From contig NZ_CP084061.1 of assembly GCF_020215665.1 (NCBI RefSeq), positions 930,001 to 994,000 on the forward strand: a stretch of DNA of 64,000 bases. The letters are read 5' to 3'. The notes beneath the pieces are model-generated. The model saw nothing but the letters and a program-made list of their open reading frames with translations. It made no database searches and was not told the DNA's origin. Each line of letters starts with the position of its first letter. Position 1 is the first letter of the stretch. Shown here in pieces: positions 37,378 through 59,300 of this stretch. The translations under genes and the position numbers were made by a program. Source of the stretch: Blautia parvula (GTDB lineage Bacteria; Bacillota; Clostridia; Lachnospirales; Lachnospiraceae).

Positions 37378-37516
37378 GTATTCACGGAAAACAGGTACAC
37401 AAACAAACCCATCAGATAATCCGATACGCACCATACCTGTTTCCCGGTGAATACAGCAGCTCTGCCGCTATCTGAACTCCGTACAATGTTTCACCGGAAA
37501 CGTTATCTGTACGGAG
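37378..37516 (-). ncRNA. Structured leader RNA hairpins before MFS gene
   Basis: Stem CTCCGTACA / TGTACGGAG (37477-37485 with 37508-37516) encloses GTTTC/GAAAC and lies inside the leader-peptide frame. A long, nearly perfect stem pairs 37378-37397 (GTATTCAC...ACAGGTA) with 37434-37454 (TACCTGT...GTGAATAC). A ribosome stalled on the leader peptide would open the first stem. The alternate folds are inferred by eye. Confidence 0.6.
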
Positions 37517-37557
37517 CTGATTCGTCTTCTCAATTTATCAGTCAAAATAAAGTTCAT
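37468..37557 (-). CDS. Putative 29-residue leader peptide of MFS gene
   Basis: Frame MNFILTDKLRRR, then ISSVQITFPVKHCTEFR. GAGGTGG is at 37563-37569, five bases before the ATG. It lies about 35 bases after the predicted transcription start. It overlaps the first leader hairpin and ends before the long stem. The layout is that of peptides controlling inducible resistance genes. Confidence 0.5.
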   Translation of the reverse strand: MNFILTDKLRRRISSVQITFPVKHCTEFR

Positions 37558-37742: not shown

Positions 37743-38606
37743 ATGCACGCGGAACAAGAACAAAGGCATGTGTATTATGACCATGACCTGGGAATCGAAG
37801 CATATAATTTGAGCGGGATTGTCCAGAAATTTCCAAACCATTTTCATGATTATTATGTGATTGGGTTTGTGGAGGGAGGAAAGAGGCATCTCTGGTGCAA
37901 AGGAATGGAGTATGACCTGAATGCCGGAGATTTGATCTTGTTTAACCCCAGAGACAATCACTTCTGTGCGCCCATCAATGGTGAAATTTTAGATTACCGT
38001 GCGGTCAATATTAATATGGATGTGATGCAGAGAGCTGTTAAGGAAATTACGGGAAAGGATTTTATCCCGCATTTTACTGAAAACGTGGTATATCAAAGTG
38101 ACATTACGCAGTCCATCGGAGATCTGTATGATGCCATTCTCGCTCACGAACCCAAACTGAAAAAGGAGGAGGCATTTTTCTTCCTTCTGCAGCAGATCCT
38201 GCAGGAACACGCAGCGCCTTTTGACGAGGCGGATATATCAGAGCCGAATCAGCAGATCAAGACGCTCTGCAGTTATATGGAGGAGCATTTTTCGGAAAAT
38301 ATCACGCTGGATGATCTGCTCTCCATGACCAGTTTCGGAAAATCGTACCTGCTGCGTTCTTTTACCAAACAGGTGGGAGTTTCTCCGTACCGCTATCTGC
38401 AGACTGTGCGCCTTAAGAAAGCCAAGGAGTTCCTGGAACAGGGTGTGGCACCCATTGACGCGGCAGATATGGCCGGTTTTGCGGACCAGAGTCATTTTAC
38501 TAATTTTTTCAAAGAATTTATCGGATTGACACCAAAACAGTATCAGAAAATCTTTACAGATAAACCGCTGCCTGTCACTCCGGCAAAGGAGTGGCCGAAT
38601 GAATAA
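37743..38606 (+). CDS. AraC family regulator with cupin-type sensor domain
   Basis: A 287-residue regulator. The N-terminal cupin-like ligand domain (NHFHDYYVIGFVEGG, LNAGDLILFNPRDNH) is followed by two HTH motifs (ITLDDLLSMTSFGKSYLLRSF and APIDAADMAGFADQSHFTNFF). Start 37743 follows AAAGGAGGAGG. Its end overlaps the EamA transporter start by 8 bases, so both are one operon and the regulator may respond to that transporter's substrate. Confidence 0.9.
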   Translation: MHAEQEQRHVYYDHDLGIEAYNLSGIVQKFPNHFHDYYVIGFVEGGKRHLWCKGMEYDLNAGDLILFNPRDNHFCAPINGEILDYRAVNINMDVMQRAVKEITGKDFIPHFTENVVYQSDITQSIGDLYDAILAHEPKLKKEEAFFFLLQQILQEHAAPFDEADISEPNQQIKTLCSYMEEHFSENITLDDLLSMTSFGKSYLLRSFTKQVGVSPYRYLQTVRLKKAKEFLEQGVAPIDAADMAGFADQSHFTNFFKEFIGLTPKQYQKIFTDKPLPVTPAKEWPNE

Positions 38607-39522
38607 GACAATACATGGGCATATAGCAGCCTTTCTTACCATTTTGATCTGGGGAACTACGTTTATCTCCACAAAAGTGCTTCTTATAAGTTTTAAACCG
38701 GTGGAAATATTATTTATCCGTTTTATGATCGGGTATTTTGCGCTCTGGTGTGTCTGCCCCCGCAGGCTGAAGGTACGCAGGAGAAAGCAGGAATGGTACT
38801 TTGCCGCAGCAGGACTCTGCGGTGTGACACTGTATTATCTGTTTGAAAATATTGCGCTGACCTATACGCTGGCCTCCAATGTGGGTGTCATCATCTCTAT
38901 TGCGCCTTTTTTTACAGTGATTTTTTCCTGTCTGTTTCTGCATGACAGGAGGCCGAATATACGGTTCTTCGCCGGGTTTTTGATTGCCCTTGCGGGTATC
39001 TTTCTGATCAGTTTCGGAGGGGAGAAGAACCTGCAGTTAAATCCTGTGGGAGATTTGCTGGCTGTGATAGCGGCAATGATCTGGGCTGCGTTTTCGACGA
39101 TCACGAAAAAGATCAGTGGGTTTGGATATAATACCATTCAGACTACAAGGCGTACGTTTTTCTATGGGCTTATCTTTATGGTCCCGGCCTTGCTTCTGAT
39201 GGATTTTCATATGGAACTTCAGCAGTTTGCCAGCTTGAAAAACGTGCTGAATCTGCTGTTCCTGGGATTCGGAGCTTCTGCGCTCTGCTTTGTGACCTGG
39301 AATCTTGCGGTTAAGATTCTGGGTTCCGTGAAGACCAGTGTCTATATTTACATGGTTCCTGTCATCACGGCAGTGACGTCGGCTCTTATCCTGCATGAGA
39401 AATTAACACGGACGATCGTCTCAGGCATTGTCCTGACACTGATCGGCCTGTTCTTATCTGAGGACAGAAAAACTGAGAAGAATACAGCAAAGGAGTATAA
39501 GGCATATGCAGGCACAAAGTGA
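38599..39522 (+). CDS. EamA/DMT family transporter
   Basis: A 307-residue permease with ten hydrophobic segments and two EamA repeats (ILIWGTTFISTKVLL at the N-terminus, and AAMIWAAFSTITKKI at mid-protein). Family members export amino acids or other metabolites. It is coupled to the AraC regulator upstream and overlaps the DUF2000 gene downstream, giving a three-gene operon. Confidence 0.9.
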   Translation: MNKTIHGHIAAFLTILIWGTTFISTKVLLISFKPVEILFIRFMIGYFALWCVCPRRLKVRRRKQEWYFAAAGLCGVTLYYLFENIALTYTLASNVGVIISIAPFFTVIFSCLFLHDRRPNIRFFAGFLIALAGIFLISFGGEKNLQLNPVGDLLAVIAAMIWAAFSTITKKISGFGYNTIQTTRRTFFYGLIFMVPALLLMDFHMELQQFASLKNVLNLLFLGFGASALCFVTWNLAVKILGSVKTSVYIYMVPVITAVTSALILHEKLTRTIVSGIVLTLIGLFLSEDRKTEKNTAKEYKAYAGTK

Positions 39523-39928
39523 TAAATGCGTCATGGTACTGGACAAGGACCTGCCCCTTGGCATTCTGGCCAACACAGCGGGAATCATGGGAATCACACT
39601 GGGAAAACACATCCCGGAGACAGTGGGGCCGGATGTGATGGATAAAAGCGGGAAGGAACATCTTGGGATCATAGAGCTTCCTGTTCCGATTCTGAAGGCA
39701 GATCAGGAGAAGATCAGAGAGATCAGGGAGCAGCTCTACCGGCCGGAATACGCGGACCTGGTGGTGGTGGATTTTTCAGATGTTGCGCAGAGCTGTAACG
39801 TCTATGAGGAGTATATAAAAAAAGCAGCAAGTGTGGCAGAAGAGGAAATGACTTACTTTGGCATCGGTATCTGCGGTGCCAGGAAGCTGGTCAATAAACT
39901 GACAGGCAGTCTGCCGCTGCTGAGATAA
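39506..39928 (+). CDS. DUF2000 family protein
   Basis: A 140-residue soluble protein. CVMVLDKDLPLGILANTAGIMGITLGK, the VVDFSDVAQSCNVYEEY stretch and FGIGICGARKLVNKLTG match the DUF2000 family (peptidyl-tRNA hydrolase-like fold, function unknown). AAAGGAG is upstream within the EamA gene. Last gene of the AraC-EamA operon. Confidence 0.85.
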   Translation: MQAQSDKCVMVLDKDLPLGILANTAGIMGITLGKHIPETVGPDVMDKSGKEHLGIIELPVPILKADQEKIREIREQLYRPEYADLVVVDFSDVAQSCNVYEEYIKKAASVAEEEMTYFGIGICGARKLVNKLTGSLPLLR

Positions 39929-39947
39929 ATAGAAGACAGAAGATAAT

Positions 39948-39976
39948 GAGCCGGTCACGTCTGCGCGGACCGGCTC
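39948..39976. terminator. Terminator hairpin at the intron insertion site
   Basis: A perfect 9-bp stem GAGCCGGTC / GACCGGCTC. Before the intron arrived it would have ended both the AraC-EamA-DUF2000 operon and the convergent HelD-like gene. The intron begins nine bases after it. Confidence 0.75.
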
Positions 39977-40045
39977 GTCTGTTATGTGCGCCTGGCGGCG
40001 CACGTTTCCAACGAGTGAAAGTCTCGAATCCGCCCGGTAGCCTGC

Positions 40046-41457
40046 AAAGAAAAAGTCAATAGTTATTTTTAAAATAAGTTATATTAAAAAATTGGTATCA
40101 CAATAAAGCCGCCAATTATTGCCGGCTGAAAAGGGAAAGATGAAAAACTACTATTAAGAAGTCAATGATGAGAGGTATTCATTGACTCGTCCGTAATAAA
40201 TACGGAGAAATTTGTTTGCACCAGCGGTCATATAAACGTAATAATCTTTGCCTTGAGCACGTTTTTTCATCATAAATCCGTATACCGGATCATCTGGAGG
40301 TGCCAGTTTCATAAGTGAGTCCATAATTAGAAATAAGGTTTTTCTGAGTTGTGGAGCTCCTCGCTTTGATGTTCGAACACTTTGTTGCTCATAGTCACCA
40401 GATTGATTGGCACCTGGATCAACCCCGGCATAGGCAGTTAGAGCACCTTTATGAGAAAAACGGGATAGATCACCGATTTCAGCTATCAGTTGCGGGCCGA
40501 GTGTAGTTCCTACCCCAGCCATATCAAGTACTATTGGGTATTCTGGAAGTTTAGCGGCAGTCTGGTTCATAAGGAGACGAAGTGATTCCACATTTTTTGA
40601 GGCTATATTTAGCTGATCAACTGCTTGCTGAATCAAAAGTTTCGTTACATTATCTTTTGACAGTGTTGCGATAAGATCGTGACTAAATTCATATATATCG
40701 TTAGGCTTTTGGGACTGAAAATTATATTTTTTCTTTTTACACCAAGATTGATACCGCTCAGAGAACGAAGAAATAGAATGTCTACGTACACAGTCAACGT
40801 GCCAGAAGATAGTGACAAAATCCACCCATTTTTGGCTTCCATCATTTCTTGCAGGGCTGTCAAAGAAGGTATTTATACCTGGAAATGTTTCATCAAGAAG
40901 AGCAATAAGATTATTCTTCATGGCTGTTTTCTGTTTCATGTAGAAATCAAACTGGCGGTTCATGTTTTTCAGTTGTCGGCGTAATTCATCCGTGTTGTTG
41001 TATGGTTTAAGTTCACACCAGTTATCAAGAGTGTAGCGTGCGATTTTTATTGCATCAGCTTTGTCTGTTTTTACTTTACGTAATGTATTATTACCAAAGT
41101 CTTTTATTAGTTTAGGATTAATGGCACTTACGAATAAACCAGCGTCTGATAACCACTGCGCCATGGGCTCATAGTATCGGCCAGTATGTTCCATAACAAT
41201 TCGAGTATCGCCATTTAAGCTTTTCAACTGGCTAATTAGATATGTTATGTCAGAAGATGTGTGTTTTACATCAAATGGTTTAGCAACAATCTCTCCGAAT
41301 GGGCGGAGGATAGCGATTGTACTTTTGTTTTTTGATACGTCAATACCTACTGCATTCATTGTATTCTCCTTGTTTTGTATTTTGCCAATGGTAAGGTCGG
41401 CTTTACTCATTGCTTATTCTAACTACTGGCTGACACGAACGTAATAGCTCTACCTGC
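40046..41457 (-). mobile_element. IS110-family insertion sequence inside the intron
   Basis: About 1412 bp, bounded by the shared sequence CCTGC (40041-40045 and 41453-41457). It carries one recombinase gene on the minus strand with short non-coding flanks of about 94-108 bases. No terminal inverted repeats are seen, as usual for IS110. Boundaries rest on restoring the intron helix and could shift by a few bases within the CCTGC repeat. One flank may encode the bridge RNA. Confidence 0.75.
40154..41359 (-). CDS. IS110 family transposase/recombinase
   Basis: A 401-residue DEDD-type recombinase. The RuvC-like domain shows GIDVSKNKS (Asp), VMEHTGRYYE (Glu) and KVKTDKADAIKIA (two Asp). The C-terminal Tnp domain shows MAGVGTTLGPQLIAEIGD, FSHKGALTAYAGVDPGANQSG and the Ser-containing RTSKRGAPQLRKTL. 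All catalytic motifs look intact. Start 41359 (MNAVGIDVSK) follows AAGGAG by 6 bases; a longer start at 41410 is possible. Such enzymes are guided by an element-encoded bridge RNA. Confidence 0.92.
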   Translation of the reverse strand: MNAVGIDVSKNKSTIAILRPFGEIVAKPFDVKHTSSDITYLISQLKSLNGDTRIVMEHTGRYYEPMAQWLSDAGLFVSAINPKLIKDFGNNTLRKVKTDKADAIKIARYTLDNWCELKPYNNTDELRRQLKNMNRQFDFYMKQKTAMKNNLIALLDETFPGINTFFDSPARNDGSQKWVDFVTIFWHVDCVRRHSISSFSERYQSWCKKKKYNFQSQKPNDIYEFSHDLIATLSKDNVTKLLIQQAVDQLNIASKNVESLRLLMNQTAAKLPEYPIVLDMAGVGTTLGPQLIAEIGDLSRFSHKGALTAYAGVDPGANQSGDYEQQSVRTSKRGAPQLRKTLFLIMDSLMKLAPPDDPVYGFMMKKRAQGKDYYVYMTAGANKFLRIYYGRVNEYLSSLTS

Positions 41458-42014
41458 GTAAAACGAATGCTGCGAATGAGGGCAGGCTGACATTCTACCG
41501 GACGGACGCGAAGTCCAAGTGGGAAGCAGTCATACCATTGTTCCCTTCATTCTAACAGCTTGAGCAATAAGAAGGATATGGACATGGTTGGTTGTCATGT
41601 ACCTTATCCATAATTCTATTGTAGTAGTGGGAAGGATATAGCCGAAAGCAAGGGTGTCCGCCGTGAGACGGAATCGGAAGGAAGCTGGATATGGGGAACA
41701 TACTAACCCATGGGCAAATCTCCGGTCTGACGAACAGAAATCACATAAAAGGTTATGCATGAGGGTAAGGCTGCATAACAAGTCGAAGCCCAATAACTAC
41801 ACGGAATCATGCATGATAAATGTGGCAGATAGATGGAGAGAAGGAAACGTGTGGTACCCAGGGAGGTCTGTGTGGAATGCTCTGAAAGGAGTAACCATAA
41901 CTGTAAGGTTATGCTGAACGCACAGAAGTCAGCAGAGGTCATAGTAGTCGAAAGATGAAGGACCGAATCAATAGGAGCCTTGAGTATGACCGAGAAAGGG
42001 AGGAATGACTTACA

Positions 42015-43406
42015 ATGACAGAAAACATGAACAATGGCTGTTCGCAAAGAGATAGTGCGGAACATGAAGGGTATGCGAAAGCGTCTAGGTCGTTCAATCG
42101 GATATGGAAAGAAAGAGACAGTGCACAGCCGAAACTCTTAGAGGCGATACTGTACAAGGGCAACATGAACAGAGCGTACAAAAGAGTAAAGGCAAACAAG
42201 GGAGCGGCGGGAATTGACGGAATGACCGTTGAAGAAGCACTCCCATATTTAAGGGAACATCAAAAGGAGTTGACAGACCGAATATTAAGAGGGAAATATA
42301 CTCCGTCTCCAGTAAGGAGAGTTGAAATCCCAAAAGCAGATGGTGGTGTGCGAAAGCTAGGCATACCGACAGTGATAGACCGAACCATACAACAGGCAAT
42401 AGCACAACAGCTAATGCCAATCTATGAACCACTCTTTAGCGAAACGAGTTACGGATATCGCCCGAACAGAAGCGCAAAAGACGCAATCCTTAAGGTAAAA
42501 GAGTATGCAGAACAAGGCTATACCTATGCGGTATCGCTGGATTTATCGAGATATTTTGATACGTTAAATCATGAACTGTTATTAAACCTTTTACGCAAGA
42601 ATGTAAAAGATGAAAGAGTAATCCAACTCATAAAACGATATCTGAAAAGTGGTGTAATGGAAAATGGAGTGGTAATGGAAACGGAAGAAGGTTCTCCGCA
42701 AGGTGGAAATCTTTCGCCGTTACTGGCAAATATCTATCTGAATGAGTTTGACCAAGAGTTCTTTAAGAGAGGTGTGCCTTGTGTCAGATATGCTGATGAC
42801 ATAGTGTTGTTAGCAAAGAGCAAGCGAGCATCAGAAAGACTGTTGGAAAGCAGTACGAAATATCTCGAAGAGAAACTGAAACTAACAGTGAACAGAAAGA
42901 AAAGCCGTACTGTCAGTGTGTTTGCAATCCGAAAATTTAAGTTCCTTGGCTTTACGTTGGGAAGGAATGGTAGTGGCATATATGTCCGAGTTCATCCAAA
43001 GTCATGGAAGAAATTTAAGTCAAAACTGAAAACCTTATCTTCCCGTAAGAAGTGTCAGAGCATAAAACCGAGTCTTGAAGAGATAAAGGTGTATGCTAGG
43101 GGCTGGCTGAATTACTACGGAATGGCAAGCATGAAGAACAACATAGAAGATATCAACGGATGGCTCTATCACAGAATACGCATGTGTATATGGAAACAGT
43201 GGAAGCTGCCTAAAACGAAAAAGAGAAATCTAATCAGAATGGGAATTCCAGAATACTATGCACATATAGCGGCTAACAGTCGAAAAGGACATTGGTTCTC
43301 TTCAAATCTTACGACAGTAAAGAGAGCTATGTTAAAAGAAAGACTGATAAACAGTGGCTTTTATGATTTAGCCACAGCCTATCAGTCTGTGCATGTCAAC
43401 TATTGA
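42015..43406 (+). CDS. ltrA: Group II intron reverse transcriptase/maturase
   Basis: A 463-residue RT. RT motifs are NKGAAGIDGMTVEE, RRVEIPKADGGVRKLGIPTVIDR, SYGYRPNRSA, VSLDLSRYFDTLNH, EGSPQGGNLSPLLANIYL and catalytic VRYADDIVLL. A maturase X domain follows (about 330-420: YARGWLNYYGM). There is no HNH endonuclease domain after it, as in introns that enter single-stranded or terminator targets. Complete frame, GGGAGG at 42000-42005. It can function only if the IS-split ribozyme does, or in trans. Confidence 0.93.
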   Translation: MTENMNNGCSQRDSAEHEGYAKASRSFNRIWKERDSAQPKLLEAILYKGNMNRAYKRVKANKGAAGIDGMTVEEALPYLREHQKELTDRILRGKYTPSPVRRVEIPKADGGVRKLGIPTVIDRTIQQAIAQQLMPIYEPLFSETSYGYRPNRSAKDAILKVKEYAEQGYTYAVSLDLSRYFDTLNHELLLNLLRKNVKDERVIQLIKRYLKSGVMENGVVMETEEGSPQGGNLSPLLANIYLNEFDQEFFKRGVPCVRYADDIVLLAKSKRASERLLESSTKYLEEKLKLTVNRKKSRTVSVFAIRKFKFLGFTLGRNGSGIYVRVHPKSWKKFKSKLKTLSSRKKCQSIKPSLEEIKVYARGWLNYYGMASMKNNIEDINGWLYHRIRMCIWKQWKLPKTKKRNLIRMGIPEYYAHIAANSRKGHWFSSNLTTVKRAMLKERLINSGFYDLATAYQSVHVNY

Positions 43407-43473
43407 AACCGCCGTGTACCGAACGGTACGCACGGTGGTGTGAGAGGACGGGAGCTAGTCACTCCCTCCTACT

Positions 43474-45501
43474 CTATTTCGGAAGGAAACAACAGGGTTC
43501 TTTTGTATGGAGGAGTGTAAGACTGTGCATGGCTCTTGTGCAGGCAATATAGAGCAGGCTGCGGTCGTATTCCGAAAAATACGTTTCCTTTCCCGCATCC
43601 GGTATGAGGACCGCGTCAAATTCCAGCCCTTTTGACATGCGCACAGAGGTGATGGATATCCCGTTTTTAAAGCTTGTGCTGTGGGGGGATATCAGCTCTA
43701 CAGGGTATGTGGGATGCAGGTGTTTAAAGAGCGCTTCAGCGTCTTTGTCCGTCTTCAGGATTATGCCCATGGAGGCGTCTCTGCCTTGTAAAAAATTTCG
43801 GATCTCCGATTCTATTTTCAGGAGTTCTTCCCCGGGAGTCTGACAGAAGATGACAGACGGAGCCTTTCCATGGCGCTTTACAGGCCGGATTTTTGTATCT
43901 TTCAGGATGGATTTGGCAAAGTTCATGATTTCCCAGGTGGAACGGTAACTGGTGTTCAGCTCGGTAAATTCTGCCTTTTCATACATGGCCCGCAGGTCAT
44001 CCAGAGTATGGCTGTGGTTCGGGTTCAGTATCTGTCCGAAGTCGCCCAGAATGGTTTTGGAACACGGAAAAAGCAGATTTATCACTGCGTACTGGATGGG
44101 AGCGTAGTCCTGCATCTCATCAATCACCAGATGTCTGGTGATCCTGCTCTCTTTCAGGCCCTCAAAGGCAGCGTGAAGGTAGAGAAAGGGATATACGTCT
44201 GCCCATTCCAGTGTCTTTTTGGAAGGCATGACAAACAGATGAGGGATGCCGGAGTCTTGGCAGAATTTTTTATATAAGGCCAGTGTGCTGCGGACGGCAA
44301 GCATGGAGGTGAGGCTTTTTAGGATGGCACGCGGCTGCGGCAGTTCTTGTTCCATGATATTATCATCCTCAAAGCTGCGGCATATATCATCTGCAATCAT
44401 GGGAAGCCTCTGTTTTATGGGATAGTTTCCATAGGCTGCAAAGCGTTTTGCAATCCAGTCTCTGTCTGCTTTGAAAGGACCGAACGTGTAGTCAGAAGGA
44501 AGAAAAATTGTGTCATTCAGCTTTTCTATATAGGAGTCCAGCATTCGTACAAATTCCAGCGTTGATTTAAAGCGGACTCTCCGGGACCATTTTTCATCCG
44601 GAACATCCGGAGGACTGCTTTCTTCCTCAAAACCAATAATACCTTCCAGCTGAATCTCTGCAATATCGGAAAAGCTGAGTTCATAGATAGGCTCCTCCCC
44701 AAGTTCCGGAATGACATTGGAAATGTAATCCCCAAACACTTTGTTCGGGGAGAGAATCGTCACATTTTGGGAAGAGAGACGGTCTTTGAAGCGGTAGAGC
44801 AAAAATGCGATCCGGTGCAGGGCGATGGAAGTTTTGCCGGAGCCGGCAGCGCCCTGGATGATCAGTGTGCCTGTATTTTCATTCCGGATAATTTTGTTCT
44901 GCTCCTTCTGGATGGTGGAGATGATGGATTTCATCTTCTCGTCGGAAGTGTGGGAAAGTTCTTTTTGAAGCACATCATCCTGGATATTGGCAGCGCTTTC
45001 CAGGGCATATTCCATGATGCAGTTTTTGATCTTAAACTGTCTTTTTCTGGTCAGATATCCCTCAATCCTTCCGGCAGGGGCATCATAGCCCGCCGGGCCT
45101 GTTTCATAGTCGTAAAACATACCGGATACAGGGGCGCGCCAGTCATAGATCAGCATTTCACCCCTGCAGCGGAAGGTAAAGCGGCCGATGTATACAATCA
45201 TTTCTTCCCCGTCATCGCATTTAAAATCAATCCGGGCAAAATAAGGGGAGTCTTTTAGTTTTGCCAGCCTATCCCTTGAGGCTGCGGCAATGGTGCCGGT
45301 GTGGTCTGTCTGCTTTAATAGCAGTTCGTTTTGAAACATTTCATGGGGATCTAATTCGCCCCGGTACTGTGCCATATAACGTTTGGCATTCTTATAGTCT
45401 GTGTCAATCCTCTCCACATCCGCGTCGGCTTCCTGTAAAGCGGCATCCAGTTTCTGGAGGATTTCTGCAAGGTGGGCTGTTTCATCAGGAAATGGATGCA
45501 T
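43474..45501 (-). CDS. HelD-like UvrD/Rep-type helicase
   Basis: A 675-residue superfamily 1 protein: N-terminal coiled coil, Walker A GAAGSGKTSIALHRIA (about residue 220), Walker B VIDEMQDYAP, motif III GDFGQ and C-terminal SVRMSKGLEFDAVLI. The early segment PYFARIDFK and YIGRF match HelD, which frees stalled RNA polymerase and in some bacteria removes rifamycins. Start 45501 follows AAAGGAGGG; it overlaps the upstream gene by 17 bases. Its TAG stop uses the last bases of the group II intron; the ancestral stop was probably TAA. Confidence 0.87.
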   Translation of the reverse strand: MHPFPDETAHLAEILQKLDAALQEADADVERIDTDYKNAKRYMAQYRGELDPHEMFQNELLLKQTDHTGTIAAASRDRLAKLKDSPYFARIDFKCDDGEEMIVYIGRFTFRCRGEMLIYDWRAPVSGMFYDYETGPAGYDAPAGRIEGYLTRKRQFKIKNCIMEYALESAANIQDDVLQKELSHTSDEKMKSIISTIQKEQNKIIRNENTGTLIIQGAAGSGKTSIALHRIAFLLYRFKDRLSSQNVTILSPNKVFGDYISNVIPELGEEPIYELSFSDIAEIQLEGIIGFEEESSPPDVPDEKWSRRVRFKSTLEFVRMLDSYIEKLNDTIFLPSDYTFGPFKADRDWIAKRFAAYGNYPIKQRLPMIADDICRSFEDDNIMEQELPQPRAILKSLTSMLAVRSTLALYKKFCQDSGIPHLFVMPSKKTLEWADVYPFLYLHAAFEGLKESRITRHLVIDEMQDYAPIQYAVINLLFPCSKTILGDFGQILNPNHSHTLDDLRAMYEKAEFTELNTSYRSTWEIMNFAKSILKDTKIRPVKRHGKAPSVIFCQTPGEELLKIESEIRNFLQGRDASMGIILKTDKDAEALFKHLHPTYPVELISPHSTSFKNGISITSVRMSKGLEFDAVLIPDAGKETYFSEYDRSLLYIACTRAMHSLTLLHTKEPCCFLPK

Positions 45502-46345
45502 CGGGTCCCTCCTTTGGCAGGATAAAACGCTGGGTGGGATAGCCGAATTCCACCAGCAGTTCCGCTTCGGCAAATCCCAGATTTTTGATCTCCCTGCGGT
45601 GCCCGGTATCGGCCCGGTCCCCCTCCCGGTATGTTGTTATGCTGATCTCTTTACCAGCGGCAAGCTCCTGCATTACCTTATCCAGAAACGCTTTGGGAAT
45701 GCCTTTTTTCCTGTATAAAGGATGGGTGCCCATAAAGTCTATGCTTCCTGTCTCCCTGGAAAAAAGCAGGATGCCGATGGCGGTTTCTTGGTCCTTCAGG
45801 ATAAGGGCCTGTCTGTCGGCAATGCTTTGTTTCAACACCTGTAAGTAGTCCTCTTCCCTGAGATGCGGAAAACCGTCTATGACCAGCCGCACAAGATCCA
45901 TCCAGCACGGAATGTCGGAATCCTGGGCAAATGTGATTTTTTCTGAGGCATTTTCATAACTGTCCAGCATGTGATAGCTCCCTTCTAATTCAAATTTTAA
46001 CTGCAGGGGGTAGAATTTCTCATTCTCCCGGTATCTGCTGGGAGGCTGCTTGTACATGGCGGTGAATATTTTGGTAAAAGCCTGCTGGCTTTCATATCCG
46101 GCCCCAAGCGCAATGTCCAGAACCGGTCTGTCGGAGAAAACAAGAAGCTTGGCAGCCTCTGTCAGACGACGGCGCAGAACATATTCATGTATGGTCATAC
46201 CCACAGTATTTGTGAACATGCGGTGCAGATGGTATTTGGAATAGTGAAGTGCTTCCGCAACCGTATCCAAATCTGTTTTTTCCATCAAATGTGTTTCAAG
46301 ATATTGAATGGCTGCGGTGATTTTTTCTATGGTTTGATTTGGCAT
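45485..46345 (-). CDS. AraC HTH fused to GNAT acetyltransferase
   Basis: 286 residues. Residues 1-110 form an AraC double HTH (TDLDTVAEALHYSKYHLHRMF and PVLDIALGAGYESQQAFTKIF). Residues 130-275 form a GNAT-like domain with IGILLFSRETGSIDFMGTHPLYRKKGIPKAFLDKVM, holding the acetyl-CoA loop in the form YRKKGI. The order is reversed from typical AraC proteins: DNA-binding first, ligand domain last, as in Rob/SoxS-with-effector fusions. AAAGGAGG precedes the start. It is translationally coupled to the HelD-like gene. Confidence 0.82.
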   Translation of the reverse strand: MPNQTIEKITAAIQYLETHLMEKTDLDTVAEALHYSKYHLHRMFTNTVGMTIHEYVLRRRLTEAAKLLVFSDRPVLDIALGAGYESQQAFTKIFTAMYKQPPSRYRENEKFYPLQLKFELEGSYHMLDSYENASEKITFAQDSDIPCWMDLVRLVIDGFPHLREEDYLQVLKQSIADRQALILKDQETAIGILLFSRETGSIDFMGTHPLYRKKGIPKAFLDKVMQELAAGKEISITTYREGDRADTGHRREIKNLGFAEAELLVEFGYPTQRFILPKEGPDASIS

Positions 46346-59197: not shown

Positions 59198-59290
59198 AAA
59201 AAAAGCTGATACCCCTGTTTGAAACAGAAGTCATCAGCAAACATGCGCTTTTGGAATATTTCCACGGGAGAACCTCATTCCCTTAAAATC
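59198..59290 (-). ncRNA. Fluoride riboswitch (crcB motif) with terminator
   Basis: On the minus strand, GGGAATGAGGTTCTCCC (59266-59282) and CTGATGACTTCTG (59225-59237) are the conserved pieces of the fluoride aptamer. Its 3' part GCTGAT pairs with ATCAGC before TTTTTTT (59198-59204), giving a fluoride-controlled terminator before the CLC-F gene. Confidence 0.85.
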
Positions 59291-59300
59291 CTACGCTAGA

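What the first reader, a model, noticed from the sequence alone, without database searches (positions are those of the whole stretch)
39986..43477. IS110 element nested inside a group II intron, splitting its domain I
The intron 5' end (GTGCGCC, GAGTGAAAGTCTC, GGTAGCCTGC) is separated by about 1.4 kb from the rest of its RNA body. Removing 40046-41457 restores a helix (GGTAG and CCTGC with GCAGG and CTACC). The maturase is intact. This is a mobile element parasitised by another. The IS is antisense to the intron. If the intron still splices, it would do so with an IS-sized insert in domain I.
Basis: partly seen in the sequence, partly recalled or inferred. Interest (0 to 1): 0.8.

Follow-up and report, generated by a model that had tools for sequence, protein, structure and literature searches.

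The report
RNA-guided transposon parasitising a group II intron
A small RNA-guided DNA transposon appears to carry a guide that matches a conserved stretch of a self-splicing mobile intron and sits in a loop of it; the same insertion seems to have arisen at least twice in related bacteria, and one genome has three copies of the combined element.

Summary
Nesting confirmed, edges corrected. An IS110-group element (40041-41627, 1,587 bp, intact transposase on -) interrupts domain I of an intact class-C-type group II intron (39986-43477). Nine of 12 relatives compared join 40040 directly to 41628. The guides match the intron at 11 of 11 scored non-core positions; over 27 family sites, guides fit their own flanks better than permuted ones (0 of 20,000). 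The insertion point is a predicted apical loop. A 97.6%-identical IS sits at the same nucleotide of a Hungatella effluvii intron only 89.8% identical; a tree rejects a common occupied ancestor (AU p 0.0003), so at least two insertions. The window genome has three composites (4 differing sites), each behind a different terminator-like hairpin, as if the composite retrohomes; three separate IS insertions are not excluded. Splicing and mobility are untested. My searches showed no printed report of an IS110 aimed at a group II intron.

The parts
39948..39976 (+). Rho-independent-terminator-like hairpin just upstream of the intron (typical class C target)
   Evidence: sequence; fold of the 60 nt upstream, -27.0 kcal/mol; different hairpins precede the two other copies
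39986..40040 (+). group II intron 5' end and first part of domain I, up to CCGGTAG
   Evidence: aligns to empty introns
40041..41627 (-). IS110-group element, 1,587 bp, counting one copy of the shared core; core AG on + (CT on the transposase strand) at 40039-40040 and 41626-41627
   Evidence: empty-site comparison; same ends in IS relatives
40041..40153 (-). IS right end, non-coding
   Evidence: CCTGCAAA..AAAAGTCAA conserved in relatives
40154..41359 (-). IS110 RNA-guided DEDD transposase/recombinase, 401 aa (MNAVGIDVSK start; an upstream ATG would give 418 aa)
   Evidence: PF01548, PF02371; NF033542 197.6 bits, cut-off 140; IS621 8wt6 E 7.9e-20
41360..41627 (-). IS left end with predicted bridge RNA (about 41400-41620; ends not determined)
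   Evidence: conserved in relatives; consensus fold of 23 distinct left ends; z -2.21 for the single sequence
41495..41501 (-). predicted right target guide (CTACCGG on +), reverse complement of intron CCGGTAG 40034-40040
41504..41516 (-). hairpin GGACGCGAAGTCC between the two target guides
41518..41526 (-). predicted left target guide (AGTGGGAAG on +), same letters as intron flank 41626-41634
41628..43477 (+). remainder of the group II intron
   Evidence: Rfam RF02001, RF01998, RF00029; 73-83% identity over the whole length to nine or more empty introns
42015..43406 (+). intron-encoded reverse transcriptase/maturase, 463 aa; Pfam finds no endonuclease domain
   Evidence: PF00078, PF08388; TIGR04416 413.9 bits; best PDB match GsI-IIC RT 6ar1 E 3.8e-108
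43407..43477 (+). domains V-VI
   Evidence: RF00029 43.9 bits, gathering 40

Best explanation
An IS110-group element whose LE-encoded bridge RNA carries target guides for a conserved domain-I sequence of terminator-seeking (class C) group II introns has inserted by guide-directed recombination at a CT core in the apical loop of a domain-I hairpin. The same guide was used at least twice, in different intron lineages. Because the insert sits in a loop and both ORFs stay intact, the intron probably still folds, splices and retrohomes carrying the IS, which would account for three composites behind three terminators in this genome. Shown here by computation: nesting, exact edges, guide-target match, independent insertions, three copies. 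Inferred: bridge-RNA activity, splicing, and retrohoming of the composite (about 0.6).
For: Exact empty site in relatives. Guides match the intron at 11 of 11 scored non-core positions (7 of 8 on the left side if two more bases are counted); over 27 sites own mean 8.19 of 11, others 5.12, 0 of 20,000 permutations; core AG 27 of 27. H. effluvii: IS 97.6% (1549/1587), intron 89.8% (48/55 plus 303/336), Fisher p 2e-10, or 1.8e-6 on non-coding IS positions only; AU p 0.000294 against one clade of occupied introns, the H. effluvii occupied intron sitting with three empty Hungatella-group introns at 99/98. The empty H. effluvii copy has GG in place of the AG core. Insertion in a predicted apical loop. 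Three composites, unrelated flanks, 4 differing positions, both ORFs open in all three.
Against: No transcript, splicing or mobility data. Only two host species with the full nested element were found. Donor-loop guides are less clear than target guides and were not scored. Some relatives fit their flanks poorly in my scoring (L078 3, L146 4, L154 4, L137 6 of 11; for L154 my pattern seems to have read the left guide two bases off). The single-sequence bridge-RNA fold is only modestly better than shuffles. The four differences among the three copies are all singletons and do not tell composite movement from repeated IS insertion.
Confidence: 0.85

Rival explanations
1. The intron dispersed first and the IS later inserted separately into each of the three introns through its guide; the composite itself does not move.
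For: The guide fits the site, an independent insertion at this site did occur in another species, and IS and intron parts of the three copies are similarly near-identical (1 and 3 differing sites).
Against: No empty full copy of this intron was found in the genome, while a perfect target in an intron fragment stands empty (L161); weak evidence only.
Confidence: 0.35
2. A single older insertion, the composite being inherited or transferred as a whole to both hosts.
For: Same site, same IS orientation, 97.6% IS identity.
Against: Intron parts are only 89.8% identical and the H. effluvii occupied intron is 96-97% identical to empty Hungatella-group introns; AU p 0.0003. Gene conversion of the intron parts is not excluded.
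Confidence: 0.05
3. A dead intron: the insertion in domain I abolishes splicing and the three copies arose by other DNA duplication.
For: Large insert in the ribozyme; no functional data; 5' intron fragments and IS scars show that introns of this kind decay.
Against: The shared part begins and ends at the intron ends (apart from a few bases that match by target), each copy after a different terminator-like hairpin, flanks unrelated; RT and maturase domains complete.
Confidence: 0.1
4. One reading: IS 40046-41457 splits a helix formed by GGTAGCCTGC with GCAGG...CTACC.
For: The complementarity is there in the sequence.
Against: Empty introns lack 41458-41627, IS relatives outside introns have it, and the guide part changes with the target in relatives.
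Confidence: 0.01

Closest known systems
IS621 and other IS110-group bridge-RNA elements (PMC11208160, passages seen)
   Same: DEDD transposase, long LE with bridge RNA, CT core, LTG for the bottom strand of LT and RTG for the top strand of RT
   Different: Target is a group II intron's domain I; bridge RNA here is predicted only
IS110-family elements that live in other repeated or mobile DNA (ISPa11, ISPpu9, ISPpu10 in REPs: PMC1525189, passages; IS4321/IS5075 in Tn21-family inverted repeats: seen only as a reference title in PMC11208160)
   Same: Site-specific use of another repeated element as a haven
   Different: Here the haven is itself a self-splicing retroelement with its own RT
IStrons (PMC4227781, abstract start and passages)
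   Same: Ribozyme intron plus IS in one element
   Different: IStrons use group I introns and the IS gives the mobility; here a group II intron with its own RT holds an antisense IS110, and the association arose more than once by insertion
Twintrons and TeI4g::ISEL2f in Thermosynechococcus elongatus (PMC2882425, passages)
   Same: A mobile element nested in a group II intron; same logic that inner copies more alike than outer ones mean separate insertions
   Different: Inner elements there are introns, or an insertion element in the maturase ORF; here a guide-programmed IS in a domain-I loop with the ORF intact
Class C group II introns (PMC4424553, passages)
   Same: No endonuclease domain, insertion after intrinsic terminators
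   Different: 1.6-kb IS in domain I

Membership tests
IS110 group (not IS1111) | DEDD_Tnp_IS110 plus Transposase_20 domains | tested here: met
   NF033542 above its cut-off
IS110 group (not IS1111) | bridge RNA in the LE, LE longer than RE | tested here: met
   LE 268 bp, RE 113 bp; predicted fold and guides in the LE; prediction only, no transcript
IS110 group (not IS1111) | target guides complementary to the target around the core | tested here: met
   11 of 11 scored non-core positions; 0 of 20,000 permutations over 27 sites
IS110 group (not IS1111) | donor guides complementary to the RE-LE junction | tested here: inconclusive
   short partial matches seen by eye on the alignment; not scored
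IS110 group (not IS1111) | circular RE-LE intermediate, bridge RNA transcript | not testable with these tools
   needs reads or PCR
Group II intron, class C | domain V and other ribozyme domains | tested here: met
   RF00029, RF02001, RF01998 above gathering
Group II intron, class C | RT and maturase without endonuclease, nearest to IIC proteins | tested here: met
Group II intron, class C | insertion after intrinsic terminators | tested here: met
   hairpin upstream of 3 of 3 copies; hairpins seen by eye upstream of many of the 34 empty relatives (not scored)
Group II intron, class C | splicing and retrohoming | not testable with these tools
   no RNA data
IStron-like composite | IS and intron move as one unit | tested here: inconclusive
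   three composites, but separate IS insertions not excluded

The most novel reading that the evidence does not exclude
A group II 'IStron': a retrohoming ribozyme and a bridge-RNA DNA transposon joined in one element that spreads two ways, by reverse splicing of the whole composite behind terminators and by bridge-RNA recombination of the IS into any empty sister intron with the AG core, with core-changed (GG) introns as resistant hosts.
Probability: 0.5. Interest if true: 0.82.

Novelty: new variant of a known kind. Interest (0 to 1): 0.62.

Why it matters
It would be a guide-RNA-directed hyperparasite of a ribozyme retroelement, and a natural test of whether a group II intron tolerates a 1.6-kb DNA transposon in domain I. 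It suggests that a bridge RNA can settle on a multicopy mobile host, and it names a possibly permissive loop in IIC introns that can be tested directly.

Tried and rejected
Rejected: IS right edge at 41457. Rejected: an intron helix across the insertion. Looked for nested copies elsewhere: viral contigs, exact pattern, 0 hits; plasmids and phages, 3 and 2 records, all 60-80% identical; genome contigs, exact 18-letter pattern with one Y, 8 hits, of which 1 full nested copy, 2 scars and 5 without similarity to IS or intron beyond chance; an exact pattern misses diverged cases. In 397 family genomes 56 had a match and 2 spanned the junction; in 392 order genomes 24 had a match and only the window genome spanned it (the two sets overlap). 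In those two calls only two candidates per genome were scored, so further copies in a genome can be missed. IS relatives at E 1e-50 or better were in 23 of 397 family genomes; apart from the window genome and G453 all listed matches were at 65-71% identity (same limit). The tblastn part used a wrong-frame transposase translation and gave nothing; it is not used. The script printed an empty consensus string, so I mapped the hairpin by hand from the printed structure and the window sequence. The promoter and terminator scan was at chance level.
Full report
What was checked. The stretch 39500-44000 was read, ORFs of 38000-46000 listed and the window scanned with Rfam. A group II intron is there: Rfam domains at 41657-41853, 41892-41963 and 43407-43477, an intact 463-aa reverse transcriptase/maturase (42015-43406; RVT_1 and GIIM; TIGR04416) whose nearest solved relatives by sequence are GsI-IIC RT (6ar1, 3.8e-108) and a group II intron RT/maturase (7uim, 1.4e-103). 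Its 5' end GTGCGCC at 39986 is cut off from the rest by an antisense IS110 transposase (DEDD_Tnp_IS110 and Transposase_20; NF033542 'IS110 family RNA-guided transposase' 197.6 bits against a cut-off of 140; IS621 8wt6, 7.9e-20).

Edges. In 195 related genomes empty introns align with q1-55 and then from q1639 onward. Of the 12 intron-bearing loci compared, nine join 40040 to 41628 with no extra base (L021-L026, L030, L031, L039); L027 has three extra bases (TAG again); L028 has another IS just upstream but is continuous at the site itself; L035 lacks most of the 5' part. So the IS is 40041-41627 with GTAG shared by both sides, and not 40046-41457. The 170 bp from 41458 to 41627 are conserved in an IS110 relative in the same genome (L016) and in a remnant (L017), neither of which has an Rfam group II match at gathering score nearby.

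Bridge RNA and target. On the transposase strand the empty target reads LT CTTCCCA, core CT, RT ACCGG. The left end holds the two matching guides around a hairpin (41495-41501, 41504-41516, 41518-41526; [quoted passage not shown] A consensus fold of 23 distinct left ends gives a 5' stem-loop and two further arms with internal loops; the window sequence alone folds with z -2.21. I collected 30 insertion sites of this IS family from loci held; three were dropped for missing flank (L143, and L080 and L081, which repeat window and H. effluvii). On the 27 left, scoring 5 right and 6 left non-core positions, guides fit their own flanks at 8.19 of 11 on average and those of others at 5.12; none of 20,000 permutations reached the observed sum (221; best 181), and the core was AG (CT) in 27 of 27. 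The sites are not all independent: seven share one guide (G008 five, G325 two), two in G064 share another, the window and H. effluvii elements share a third, and one element is truncated (L070). Some fit badly: L078 3, L146 4, L154 4 (there my pattern seems to have read the left guide two bases off), L137 6 of 11. The window element fits 11 of 11, and 7 of 8 on the left side if two more bases are counted.

Where in the intron. The consensus fold of 31 empty introns (first 300 nt) and the fold of the window's own joined flanks show a hairpin ATCC-G-CCCG(GTAG)TGGG-AA-GGAT. The IS lies directly after GTAG, at the apical loop, so no predicted helix is broken.

Two independent insertions. An exact 18-letter pattern of IS left end plus intron found 8 places in genome contigs. 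One is a full nested copy in Hungatella effluvii (L065), two are intron fragments with only about 60 bp of IS left end (L059, L060), five are unrelated. In H. effluvii the IS is 97.6% identical (1549/1587), but the intron parts that can be read before the contig ends are 48/55 and 303/336 (4 gap columns left out), together 89.8%. The difference is significant, also on non-coding IS positions only (8 of 381 against 40 of 391). In a tree of 28 introns (2 occupied, 26 empty: those of at least 380 nt among the distinct ones held, L161 left out) the H. effluvii occupied intron falls with three empty Hungatella-group introns (99/98), and holding the two occupied introns together is rejected (AU p 0.000294). 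Only 5 of 25 inner branches are well supported and two rows have long branches, so I use only this one result. The H. effluvii genome also has an empty intron, with GG for the AG core. Of 54 distinct empty sites held, 32 have the exact 14-base target and 16 the GG form, 15 of these 16 in two Hungatella-group genomes. So many introns with a perfect target are empty, as expected where this IS is absent.

Three composites. The window genome has three copies of the whole composite. They differ at four positions in all: 40468 in the IS, 42619, 42842 and 43124 in the intron; both ORFs are open in all three, flanks are unrelated, and each sits behind a different terminator-like hairpin with TTAT before the intron. 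Class C introns are known to insert after intrinsic terminators (PMC4424553, passages). No other full copy of this intron was found in the genome; one intron fragment with a perfect target is empty (L161). I read this as probable retrohoming of the composite, but three separate IS insertions would leave the same pattern.

How rare. The junction spans in 2 of 397 family genomes (56 with a match) and 1 of 392 order genomes (24 with a match), with two candidates scored per genome. A genome of the Hungatella genus (G064) that holds only 68-69% relatives of this IS had 18 intron matches, none running into the IS left end.

Literature. Searches for IS110 with group II intron (28 papers), bridge RNA with group II intron (4), IStron with group II intron (6), nested-insertion terms (29, 25 listed) and interrupted-intron terms (13) were run, besides two on IS621 and on class C introns. 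I saw passages of PMC11208160, PMC1525189, PMC4424553, PMC4227781, PMC11376236 and PMC2882425 and only listings of the rest. Known are an insertion element in the maturase ORF of TeI4g and twintrons (PMC2882425), IStrons with group I introns (PMC4227781) and IS110 elements in REPs (PMC1525189). None of what I saw reports an IS110 aimed at a group II intron; most subscription papers are missing from that library.

Host. The H. effluvii genome (G489, which by size and coordinates is G453) is listed as the same family as the window genome.

Noticed in passing
L050 1494-4304 (G004:C1:1456000-1463500): A different IS, with three ORFs that look like IS66 tnpA/B/C (label from memory, not scanned), sits in the same intron within 14 nt upstream of the IS110 site, flanked by an 8-bp repeat AATCCGCC.
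   Followed up: partly
L059 6859-6921 and L060 6934-6990 (minus strand): Two intron fragments hold only about 60 bp of the IS left end, joined directly after CCCGGTAG. In both the join falls at an AG, as if recombination used the core and a second AG inside the left end.
   Followed up: partly
IS relatives listed: Relatives of this IS with other guides often sit just upstream of a Shine-Dalgarno-like stretch and ATG (11 of 25 non-intron sites, counted by eye), so the subfamily may often be programmed to ribosome-binding sites.
   Followed up: partly
L161 (G000:C1:3618291-3618304, minus): A short 5' fragment of the intron (about 75-90 nt by eye) behind a terminator-like hairpin, with the exact IS target unoccupied; no Rfam match.
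   Followed up: partly
L017 3038-3718: An IS110 left-end remnant overlaps the end of a 159-aa ORF that looks like the start of another transposase (by eye only).
   Followed up: no
G064, 18 places: One genome of the Hungatella genus has 18 matches to this intron; the 14 copies held as loci and read all carry GG in place of the AG core.
   Followed up: partly
window 59218-59291 (-) and 37476-37526 (-): Fluoride riboswitch and uup RNA matches; both reach their gathering scores.
   Followed up: no
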